Source: Acidimicrobiia bacterium (GTDB lineage: Bacteria; Actinomycetota; Acidimicrobiia; Spongiisociales; Spongiisociaceae). From it: a stretch of DNA of 42,692 bases. The DNA lies in contig VXMP01000085.1 in NCBI GenBank assembly GCA_009841075.1, positions 1 to 42,692 of the forward strand, read 5' to 3'. The translations under genes and the position numbers were made by a program. Below the pieces are notes generated by a model, which was not told where the DNA came from, did no database searches, and saw only the letters and a list, made by a program, of their open reading frames with translations. This document shows positions 29,024 to 32,000 of this stretch, piece by piece. The first letter of the stretch is position 1; every line of letters starts with the position of its first letter.

Positions 29024-32000
29024 TTAGATCCAGTGGCGGCGGCGTTGGAAGGGGTAGAGGGGGGCGGATATGCGGCGGCGGGTTTCGCCGGCGAACAGTC
29101 CGGCAAAGTTAATGTCGAATCCGGCCTCATAGGCGCGGGCTACGGCTCTTATGAACCCGTCCTCATGATCGGTGGGGGAGGTTATTAGGAGTGACCCCGG
29201 TCCGGTGGCATTTGCCGCACTGGTGATCGATCCGGGGTCGGGGCCGATCTCAATCAGGGCGTCTACCTCGACCCGGTTTAGTGTCTTTCTCCAGCCCAAG
29301 TTATCGGTCTGCCCTGGAGTTCGATTGTTCGTGTGGTGGAGGTCGAAATCGGATAATGACTCCACTGCCTGGCCGTTGGTGCCGTTGATCATGAGCGCCG
29401 ACGAGGGAGCAAAAGTGATTTGGGCGAGGGTTGCTTCCAGAACCTCCAGGGCTTTGGTCTGCTGCCCGGACCGGGCATTCGGTACGACATCCAGCGCCGC
29501 CGCTACCCTCAAACCCTCTTCCAACGTGATGGCTCCCGCTGCCCAGGCTGCCGCCAAACCGCCGGAGCCATGCCCCACCACCAGATCAGGCCGGATCCCC
29601 ACACTGCCCCATAGTGCGGTCAGGGCGCATTCCAACGCATAGGCAGGCGGCCCGGTATCCGGCCAGGGCTCTTCCGGGTTTTGTCGGATCAACTCCTCGC
29701 ATCGGGCCAGTACTGCCCGCGCCACCGGCTCTTGACGACATATTGATAGGCCCGACTTGATCCACGTACCCACCTCCCCGTAGTAGGTGAAGGCGACCCG
29801 GAGAGGTCCGTGGTCGGGTGGTTGATCCGGCCCCTCTTGGCCCTCGGCTTGCTTCTGAAGCTGCTGCCTAAGCCGGCCGGCATCGTCGAATAACAGCCCG
29901 GCCCGGTGGGGAAAATGACTGCGGCCTACGCCTGCTGTCCAAGCCAGATCGGAAAGCAGGTCAGGGGAGGAGACATGGTCGTCGAGCCAGGCGAGATAAC
30001 GGCCCGCCAGATCACGGAGCGCCTTGGGCGACTTTCCGGAGAGCGGCAGCAGGCGAACCGCACGCGCACGCTCGGACGGCTCATCCCAGGAGGCCGGAGA
30101 GGTGCCAGCCAAGGGTTCGGGAAGCGACACCGGTACCGGCAGGGGGGCACCGGTCGGCAATCGGGGAGAACCGCCGCCGGCGACCGATGCGTATCCCTCT
30201 ACCAGAACGTGGGCGTTGGTGCCGGATAGACCGAAGGCGTTGATCCCCGCCATGGGTGGGTGCACGGAATCCGCCGGCCAGGAGGTTTTCTCGGACGCTA
30301 TCCGCATCGGAATCCGGTCCCAGTCCACATGAGGGTTAGGGTCGTCAAAGTTCAGCTGCGGAGGGATGACCCCTTGGCCCATCGACAGTACCGTCTTGAT
30401 GAAGGCGGCTATCCCGGCGGCCCATTCGGTGTGGCCTATATTCGACTTGACCGTTCCGATGATTAGCGGGTTACTTTGGTCGCGGCCCTCGCCATAGACG
30501 GCGGCGGCGGCGTTCAGCTCGATCGGATCGCCCAGTTGGGAGCCGGTGGCGTGGGCCTCCAGATAGTCCACCCTTAAAGGCGACACACCGGCCTGGGCCA
30601 GGGCTTCGGCCATCACCTTCTCCTGGGCGGGTCCGTTCGGCACCGTAAGCCCGGCACCGGCACCGTTCTGGTTGACAGCCGACCCCCGGATGACCGCCCA
30701 GATACGGTCGCCTGCGGCCTCGGCATCCCTTAGGCGCTTCAGAACCACCATGCCGCAGCCCTCGCCGCGGACGTATCCTGAGGCGGCTGCGTCAAACGGT
30801 CTGATCTGACCGTTTGGAGCCAGCATTCCAATGTCCATCATGAATCTTGAAATGGCCGGGGACAGCACCACGTTGACCCCGCCGACCAGAGCCGCGTCGA
30901 CCTCGTCCCTTTGCAAGGCCGCCACCGCCTGATGGATAGCAGCCAGCGAAGAGGCGCAGGCCATGTCGACCGGCAGGGCCGGACCCTGCAGTCCCAGAGT
31001 GAACGCAATCCGGCCCACGGCGACGCTGCCGGTGGTACCCAGGTAACTATCGGCCCGGTTGCCCGCCGAGATCAAATCCCGATATTCGGCGGTGCCAATC
31101 CCGACATAAACTCCGGTGCGGCTTCCGATGAGCTGGGCCGGGTCGAGCCCGGCGTCCTCAATCGCCTGCCGGCTGATCTCCAGCAGCATCCTTTGCTGGG
31201 GGTCCATGAGCTGCGCCTCGATGGGCGAGATGGAGAAGAAGCGCGAGTCGAATAGATCAATGTCATTCAGGAAGGCACCCCGCCGGTAGGCCACATCTTC
31301 GGCCTCGGGATCTCCTACTACGCCCGCCCAGGATCCTCCGTCGAGACGGCCGTCGGTGATGGCTTCGCCTCCCGATTCCAGCAGATCCCAGAACGCGGTC
31401 AGGTTTTCGGCACCGGGAAACCGACAGGCCATGCCGACCACGGCGATGCCGTCTTGGTCGGCTGCGACCGGTGGGGAGGCTTCGGGACCAGACCAATCGG
31501 GCGCTTGAGCATCATTTACATCCTCAGTGGACCGGCCGAGTTCTTCGGCCATGTGACGGGCCAGGACTGCAATATCCGGATAGTCGAATACCACGGTATT
31601 GGAGGCGACATACTCCCCGGCGAAGGCCCGGTTCAGCCGGTTTCGTAGCTCCACCGCCATCAGCGAATCCATGCCCAGGTCAAAGAACCCGACCGTCGGG
31701 GGCGGTGTCTTGGGCAATCGCAGAACGGCCTGTACCTCCTGCTGGAGGAAGGAGACCAGCATCTGCTCGGATAGCCCACCCGAACCACTCCGCAGCCGGG
31801 TCAACAAATCGTCCGAAGGAGTTGAATCTTCGGCGTCATTGTCGGAATCGGAGGAAAGCATCTCCTCCAACAGAGGAGGACGGTGTTCGATTGCCCGCTC
31901 GAACACAGACCAGTCCATCGACATGACTACCGAATTGGTGGTGTCCTGACGAACCAGCCGCTCCAACGCTCGAATGCCCTGCTTGGGAGTGAACCAGCGT

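What the first reader, a model, noticed from the sequence alone, without database searches (positions are those of the whole stretch)
29024..30220. Second PKS module has a dead, shortened AT and no carrier protein
KS2 keeps Cys2743 and both His motifs, but the AT that follows has GHGSGG instead of GHSxG (Gly3206), YYGEVGTW in place of the usual GQGSQW, and no AFHS region. The protein stops exactly after the post-AT linker YPFQRRRHWI, which repeats the module 1 linker. The surviving KS suggests selection for a condensing or chain-transfer step without its own extender loading. A trans partner is implied.
Basis: partly seen in the sequence, partly recalled or inferred. Interest (0 to 1): 0.7.

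Follow-up and report, generated by a model that had tools for sequence, protein, structure and literature searches.

The report
Split final module of sponge-symbiont PKS
A giant lipid-making enzyme of sponge-dwelling bacteria ends in a half-module whose loading domain is dead and whose carrier domain is missing, and a separate small carrier-protein gene nearby, found with it in many bacterial groups, most likely completes that half-module.

Summary
The 3386-aa PKS (29024-39184, minus) reads KS-AT-DH-MT-ER-KR-ACP-KS2-AT0 and stops after the second post-AT linker. It is neither a recent truncation nor an assembly error: in 35 of 35 family loci whose 3' end is on the contig, over six named phyla, the protein stops 0-16 residues after that linker. 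AT2 lost the catalytic Ser in 33 of 34 comparable rows and the AFHS region in 36 of 36. KS2 is under purifying selection like KS1 (omega 0.05-0.20); AT0 is relaxed. A trans partner can be named: a discrete ACP at 40105-40350 (+), beside a PPTase and an alpha/beta hydrolase. It is in 26 of 39 family loci, in 17 of 35 directly behind the PKS; among 138 genomes, 13 of the 16 with either have both. KS2 lacks canonical HGTGT in 40 of 41 copies (KS1 has it in 32 of 32), so final condensation and non-elongating hand-off both stay open. The family is probably the known "sup" PKS of sponges; this is unconfirmed, as no sup sequence or original paper was held.

The parts
29024..39184 (-). type I PKS gene, 3386 aa, KS-AT-DH-MT-ER-KR-ACP-KS2-AT0
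   Evidence: single ORF; Pfam domains
37865..39118 (-). KS1 (DPQQR, HGTGT, NIGH)
36629..37492 (-). AT1, motifs intact (GQGSQW, GHSVGE, AFHS)
35489..36379 (-). DH
34322..34846 (-). methyltransferase domain (EIGAGTG), C-methylation inferred
32636..33496 (-). ER
32060..32593 (-). KR
31553..31747 (-). ACP1 (GMDSL Ser)
30254..31459 (-). KS2, Cys2743, His2878 (HATGS), His2918 (NIGH)
29858..30052 (-). KS-AT linker (CurL-like / RhiE-like linker), kept
29150..29806 (-). AT0: AT remnant without the Ser and without the stretch that holds the catalytic His
29558..29575 (-). GHGSGG, dead nucleophile elbow (Gly3206)
29024..29158 (-). post-AT linker ending YPFQRRRHWI, then the stop
39296..40003 (-). 4'-phosphopantetheinyl transferase
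   Evidence: PF01648 over its cut-off; best NCBIfam model HetI, below that model's cut-off
40105..40350 (+). discrete ACP, 81 aa, Ser40 (40222-40224) in GVSSMD: proposed trans carrier of the last module
40347..41261 (-). alpha/beta hydrolase (FHSIS, presumed nucleophile motif), convergent with the ACP gene

Best explanation
The end of this PKS is the surviving part of a split last module. Module 1 (KS1-AT1-DH-MT-ER-KR-ACP1) builds a reduced, C-methylated acyl chain, probably iteratively (inferred from its domains). KS2 takes that chain from ACP1 onto Cys2743. The discrete ACP at 40105-40350, presumably activated by the neighbouring PPTase, is the missing carrier of module 2. Since AT0 should not be able to load it, it would be charged by AT1 or by the genome's only other AT hit (C36). 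Most likely KS2 performs one decarboxylative condensation onto the free ACP, and the adjacent alpha/beta hydrolase releases or processes the product. AT0 with its two linkers is kept as a scaffold that packs on KS2. Shown here: the architecture, its conservation, the loss of the AT motifs, purifying selection on KS2, and co-distribution with the ACP, hydrolase and often the PPTase. Inferred: the KS2-ACP pairing, the chemistry, the order of steps, the scaffold role and the product.
For: 35 of 35 loci with a 3' end stop at the post-AT linker. The free ACP is in 26 of 39 family loci and 0 of 41 other PKS loci (L094, L100-L139); in 17 of 35 it lies 73-203 nt behind the PKS match on the same strand; the hydrolase is in 25 of 35 and the PPTase in 17 of 35. 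The ACP's Ser40 is invariant in 19 of 19 aligned. Across 138 genomes of the order: 13 have both PKS (E <= 1e-110) and ACP (E <= 1e-15), 2 the PKS only, 1 the ACP only. KS2 keeps Cys and the NIGH His in 40 of 40 and the HGTGT-position His in 37 of 40; G002, a 41st copy, keeps all three. dN/dS of KS2 is 0.05-0.20 in 18 pairs, KS1 0.02-0.14 in 8, AT0 0.20-0.49 in 17 and 0.91 in one near-identical pair. Where the AT is wholly gone (L090 = G005, and G002), the KS-AT linker and post-AT linker remain.
Against: KS2 has lost the canonical HGTGT motif in 40 of 41 copies, and in 3 the His is Gln (L078, L087, L097), which argues against plain condensation, at least there. Nine of 35 loci have no free ACP in reach: four of those genomes carry it on another contig, G010 (L066) shows none, and four were not searched genome-wide. 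Seven genomes carry two such ACPs; the four second copies that I looked at had no PKS or hydrolase beside them. In the window the ACP lies on the opposite strand, so it is not co-transcribed with the PKS. The KS-AT linker itself is not strongly constrained (dN/dS 0.09-0.59 in 17 pairs, 0 in one), which weakens the scaffold argument for that part. Co-occurrence counts are not corrected for shared descent, and their E-value limits were set by me. No physical interaction was tested.
Confidence: 0.5

Rival explanations
1. KS2 is a non-elongating transacylase (KS0-like gate): it lifts the finished chain from ACP1 and passes it to the free ACP, which delivers it to the hydrolase or an acyltransferase. 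No carbon is added.
For: HGTGT is altered in 40 of 41 KS2 but in 0 of 32 KS1 and 1 of 77 other KS rows; three KS2 copies have lost the His. Terminal KS domains with altered HGTGT are described in algal PKSs, where those that lost the His are proposed to release or transfer the chain (PMC4661987, passages), and a terminal KS0 in swinholide SwiF (PMC5772238, passages).
Against: The HGTGT-position His is kept in 37 of 40 (plus G002) and the NIGH His in 40 of 40, which a pure transacylase would not be expected to need. G002 keeps HGTGT unchanged.
Confidence: 0.3
2. KS2-AT0 is a structural or gating relic that stabilises the dimer or limits chain length; the free ACP serves another enzyme and sits nearby by chance or for another pathway.
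For: AT0 is decaying and is wholly lost in some lineages; in several genomes the ACP is on another contig than the PKS end, where it still pairs with the hydrolase.
Against: KS2 has dN/dS like KS1 and an unbroken catalytic Cys (40 of 40). The ACP is absent from the KS2-less genome G071 and is directly behind the PKS in 17 of 35 loci.
Confidence: 0.15
3. Recent truncation, frameshift or assembly error in one genome.
For: Draft genome; frameshifts do occur in module 1 of several relatives and in KS2 of G002.
Against: The same end in 35 of 35 contigs from six named phyla; the window's gene is open throughout.
Confidence: 0.01

Closest known systems
Sup (sponge symbiont ubiquitous) PKS
   Same: Type I PKS spread over sponge symbionts of several phyla, proposed to make methyl-branched fatty acids (PMC4245539 section 9; PMC9426513 passages). 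KS1 has DPQQR and HGTGT, the kind of site that KS primers target. A permease group stands within the fetched flanks of 14 of 39 loci; the one member classified, in L087, is NCS2-type; SupE is called a permease in PMC3908369 Table 1. The order PKS-ACP-PPTase-hydrolase-permease in L087 would fit letters A to E.
   Different: PMC4245539 calls Sup 'small monomodular', whereas this PKS has a second KS with AT0. No Sup sequence was available, so identity is not shown.
Swf (sponge widespread FAS)
   Same: Sponge-symbiont type I PKS/FAS; its KS also departs from HGTGT (HATGT).
   Different: Swf is KS-AT-DH-ER-KR-ACP with SwfB and mostly SwfC, no MT domain and no second KS (PMC3908369).
trans-AT PKS ketosynthases
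   Same: KS followed by a KS-AT linker without a working AT; the KS2-AT0 model matches bacillaene KS6 (5e5n, Z 46.9, 511 aligned, rmsd 3.1) as well as cis KS-AT didomains (7s6b, Z 47.7, 725 aligned, rmsd 4.3).
   Different: Module 1 has an AT with intact motifs in cis. Here the carrier, not only the AT, would be in trans. KS2 branches as sister of this family's own KS1.
Terminal KS domains with altered HGTGT (algal PKSs; SwiF KS0)
   Same: Last KS of the protein, HGTGT altered, sometimes without the His.
   Different: In a bacterial cis-AT, seemingly iterative PKS; followed by a degenerate AT; a discrete ACP co-distributes.
SalC, standalone KS of salinosporamide biosynthesis
   Same: A KS-fold enzyme with a non-standard role (PMC9582728, one passage); listed among the fold matches (7s2x, Z 44.4).
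   Different: Free-standing; no sequence relationship was tested.

Membership tests
Sup PKS | sequence identity with deposited supA/SupA | not testable with these tools
   No Sup sequence was at hand; PMC1855645 (Fieseler 2007) and pmid 21077090 not held
Sup PKS | KS carries the DPQQ motif that KS primers target (PMC4245539 assigns over 99% of usable KS amplicons of one sponge to supA) | tested here: met
   KS1 DPQQR 32 of 32, HGTGT 32 of 32; primer logic PMC4245539
Sup PKS | found in symbionts of several phyla of sponges | tested here: inconclusive
   39 loci, six named phyla; the sponge origin of the bins is recalled from series names, not shown by a call
Sup PKS | SupE-like permease in the cluster | tested here: inconclusive
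Sup PKS | monomodular, as the papers seen describe it | tested here: not met
   A second KS plus AT0 is present; the description may be loose, so I do not file the locus as Sup but say that it probably is
Swf | KS-AT-DH-ER-KR-ACP, with HATGT and a changed DPQQR in its only KS | tested here: not met
   MT and KS2 present; KS1 DPQQR/HGTGT
trans-AT PKS | modules without integrated AT, served by a stand-alone AT | tested here: not met
   AT1 with intact motifs in cis; the only other AT hit of the genome is on C36 within 4 kb of a KS and an ACP
non-elongating KS (KS0) | loss of the HGTGT histidine | tested here: not met
   His2878 kept in the window, lost in 3 of 40 family copies
active AT domain | GHSxG serine and AFHS-type histidine | tested here: not met
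   AT2: Gly3206, AFHS region absent
acyl carrier protein | phosphopantetheine Ser in the DSL-type motif | tested here: met
   free ACP Ser40 invariant 19 of 19; PF00550 over its cut-off

The most novel reading that the evidence does not exclude
A PKS family carried by many sponge symbionts and described as monomodular is in fact a one-and-a-half-module enzyme. Its terminal KS, with a remodelled HGTGT loop, works with its own dedicated discrete ACP and hydrolase to extend or offload the chain. The family also preserves stages by which a cis AT is lost: intact AT1, then an AT without Ser and without the stretch holding the His, then complete AT excision with both linkers left in place. That would be a separate, observable route to AT-less modules.
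Probability: 0.4. Interest if true: 0.7.

Novelty: new variant of a known kind. Interest (0 to 1): 0.5.

Why it matters
If the family is Sup, the product of one of the most abundant PKS types of sponges has been predicted, in the papers seen, from a single module and without its last catalytic unit. A named KS2-ACP-hydrolase set gives a concrete in vitro test of what that unit adds. The graded loss of AT2 also suggests which parts of a KS-AT core a KS can do without: in the most reduced copies only the two linkers remain.

Tried and rejected
Swf was considered first and rejected on domain order and motifs. Recent truncation or assembly error was rejected. Module-1 frameshifts in G006, G085, G008 and G001 were examined as possible split genes or programmed frameshifts: they lie at different places, so errors or local decay are likelier. 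Second ACP copies (G007 C159, G006 C44) were looked at for a receiving enzyme; nothing I could recognise came up. The conserved-neighbour clustering mostly returned out-of-frame shadows of the PKS; only the ACP, hydrolase, PPTase and permease groups were used. The AT-less L090 model was too weak to use (mean pLDDT 60.9) and was not searched. The KS2-AT0 model is only moderate (pLDDT 71.6): its fold match supports KS plus linkers plus an AT-like remainder, no more. The KR shows His where the catalytic Tyr is expected (expectation recalled), in 38 of 38 family motifs found, but also in 12 of 19 motifs of other loci, so it was not taken as special. A first pass on KS motifs mixed some KS2 into the KS1 set; one search replaced it, and followed up the one KS2 (G002) with HGTGT that one search had shown. 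The hydrolase has no informative solved relative (one weak hit). Searches for print descriptions of the terminal KS-AT0 of Sup listed none that I recognised, but the key papers are not held, so absence from print is not claimed. The genome scan used two peptide patterns and kept the best 80 of 375 relatives, so the 39 loci are not a census.

Full report
What is there. The gene at 29024-39184 (minus) is one open frame of 3386 aa with Pfam domains KS, AT, DH, MT, ER, KR, ACP, KS and a partial AT. The window is a complete contig of a 2.3-Mb, 96%-complete draft genome. PF00109 finds four KS stretches in that genome: KS1, KS2, a 425-aa protein on C36 and a weak hit on C8. PF00698 finds three AT stretches: AT1, one on C36, and the 48-position remnant in AT0. 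PF00550 finds three carriers: one on C36, ACP1, and a free ACP in the window. So if the free ACP carries an extender unit, the candidates to load it are AT1 and the C36 AT.

The dead AT. Against AT1, AT0 lacks the equivalents of residues 690-703 and 712-770 in at least 80% of the 18 AT0 rows compared (window and 17 loci); the second stretch includes the AFHS motif (I recall that this region corresponds to the small ferredoxin-like subdomain). In 36 rows (35 loci and the window) the AFHS columns are gaps in all. At the GHSxG serine, 33 of 34 comparable rows have another residue; L097 keeps Ser (GCSVG), and in L087 and L090 the region is gone. L090 (= G005) and G002 have no AT left but keep the KS-AT linker and the post-AT linker (G002 is frame-broken in its assembly). 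[quoted passage not shown] Retention of these parts fits a scaffold role, which remains an inference.

Conservation. Full-length KS2-AT0 matches at 64-65% identity occur in nine relatives (G001, G003, G006-G010, G065, G085). The genome-contig scan kept the best 80 of 375 relatives; 39 of the 80 (L060-L099 without L094) have this family's domain order as far as the contig reaches. By record titles they lie in Chloroflexota (16), Actinomycetota (7), Gemmatimonadota (5), Pseudomonadota (3), Acidobacteriota (2), Latescibacterota (1) and 5 unassigned. Four run off the contig (L085, L086, L089, L095); the other 35 all stop 0-16 residues after YPFQR...W (L081 and L084 read in the frame of the match end). 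None of the 35 has a complete second module. In a quick tree of 149 KS rows, KS1 (32 rows, SH-aLRT 98) and KS2 (40 rows, 100) are sister clades that unite at 98, with a KS of L094, which has several further KS domains, next. This points to one internal duplication before the spread over phyla, with the quick-tree caveat.

Selection. Nei-Gojobori dN/dS on 18 close pairs (not independent): KS2 0.05-0.20 (18 pairs), KS1 0.02-0.14 (8 pairs with finite values), AT1 0.10-0.26 (9), AT0 core 0.20-0.49 (17) and 0.91 (one near-identical pair), post-AT linker 0.08-0.32 (16 with a value), KS-AT linker of KS2 0.09-0.59 (17) and 0 (one). KS2 is constrained like KS1. AT0 is relaxed but not free. The KS-AT linker is about as relaxed as AT0, which does not favour a strongly sequence-dependent scaffold.

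KS2 is changed in a telling way. HGTGT is 32 of 32 in KS1 and 76 of 77 in other PKS rows, but 0 of 40 in the KS2 rows: HATGS 13, HGVGS 5, HGSGS 4, HGPGT 4, HGAGS 4, HAVGS 3, QGVGS 3, HGTGS 2, HTTGS 1, HGGGS 1. One further KS2, that of G002, keeps HGTGT, so the tally is 40 of 41 altered. The Cys and the NIGH His are kept in 40 of 40 and in G002. This leaves condensation possible in 38 of 41 and unlikely by the usual mechanism in 3. PMC4661987 (passages) reports algal terminal KSs with HANGT that keep Cys and His, and others that lost the His and may release or transfer the chain. SwiF of swinholide ends in a KS0 (PMC5772238, passages). SalC, seen in one passage of PMC9582728, is a standalone KS with a non-standard role.

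The trans partner. At 40105-40350 (+) lies an 81-aa ACP. Its profile finds a relative in 26 of 39 family loci and in none of the 41 other loci (L094, L100-L139) scanned in the same call. Ser40 is invariant in 19 aligned members. In 17 of 35 loci with a 3' end it starts 73-203 nt behind the PKS match on the same strand; the hydrolase is in 25 and the PPTase in 17 of the 35. Of the nine loci without the ACP, the genomes of L063, L064, L076 and L082 (G008, G003, G009, G007) have it on another contig, in each case convergent with a hydrolase gene, in G009 beside the start of the PKS. G010 (L066) has none found; its PKS runs into a contig end. L061, L062, L067 and L096 were not followed. Over 138 genomes of the order, the PKS family (E <= 1e-110) is in 15, the ACP (E <= 1e-15) in 14, both in 13. 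The exceptions are G010, G071 (KS1 without KS2) and G013 (only a PKS start at a contig end). Fisher's p is 2.5e-15 without correction for descent.

Structure. The AlphaFold2 model of KS2-AT0 (31 sequences, mean pLDDT 71.6, pTM 0.67) matches cis KS-AT didomains (7s6b, Z 47.7, 725 aligned, rmsd 4.3) and, within one Z unit, a trans-AT KS (5e5n, Z 46.9, 511 aligned, rmsd 3.1). The AT-less L090 model is weak (pLDDT 60.9).

How it most likely works. Module 1 makes a C-methylated, reduced chain (AT1 has AFHS, which I recall as malonyl-type; MT motif EIGAGTG). KS2 picks it up and reacts with the free ACP, and the hydrolase beside the ACP gene acts on the product. Condensation is my first choice because the full Cys-His-His set is kept in 38 of 41 copies; simple transfer is close behind because the HGTGT loop is remodelled in 40 of 41. 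The pairing, the chemistry and the product are inferences.

What it is. The distribution, DPQQR/HGTGT in KS1, the MT domain and the gene order fit the Sup PKS family. PMC9426513 (passages) reports SUP-like clusters in MAGs of Chloroflexota, Spirochaetota, Proteobacteria and Acidobacteriota. PMC4245539 (section 9 read) calls Sup 'small monomodular', cites mid-chain branched fatty acids as the proposed product, and calls the source organism an unresolved problem. The 2007 and 2010 originals are not held. They may already show the terminal KS, in which case this is only a new member of a known family. I therefore rate it a new variant, with that reservation.

Noticed in passing
window 21240-23666 (-): A substrate-binding-protein gene holds two tandem copies of a 984-nt unit; the first 923 nt are identical (939 of 969 compared), suggesting a very recent duplication or an assembly duplication.
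   Followed up: partly
window 29024-39184, KR near 32100: The KR has GQANHAAAN, His where the catalytic Tyr is expected; 38 of 38 family motifs found and 12 of 19 motifs in other loci share it.
   Followed up: partly
L042 about 11340, L051 about 11050, L052 about 4800, L048 about 4700: Module-1 frameshifts at different places in relatives, one at a run of G in L051.
   Followed up: partly
L078 and L097: The two Gemmatimonadales loci carry two free ACPs each (one on either side of the PKS) and a KS2 with Gln for the HGTGT His; L097 alone keeps Ser in AT2.
   Followed up: no
L157, L158, L159 and L161 (G004, G009, G007, G006): A second free-ACP copy (108-aa frame) occurs in seven genomes of the genus; the four looked at have no PKS or hydrolase recognised beside them.
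   Followed up: partly
window 41989-42690 (-): Contig-end ORF with a simple repeat reading RERERERE.
   Followed up: no
L058 (G071): A relative with only KS1-AT1 recognised (991 aa), two hydrolase copies, no KS2 and no free ACP of this family: a decayed cluster.
   Followed up: partly
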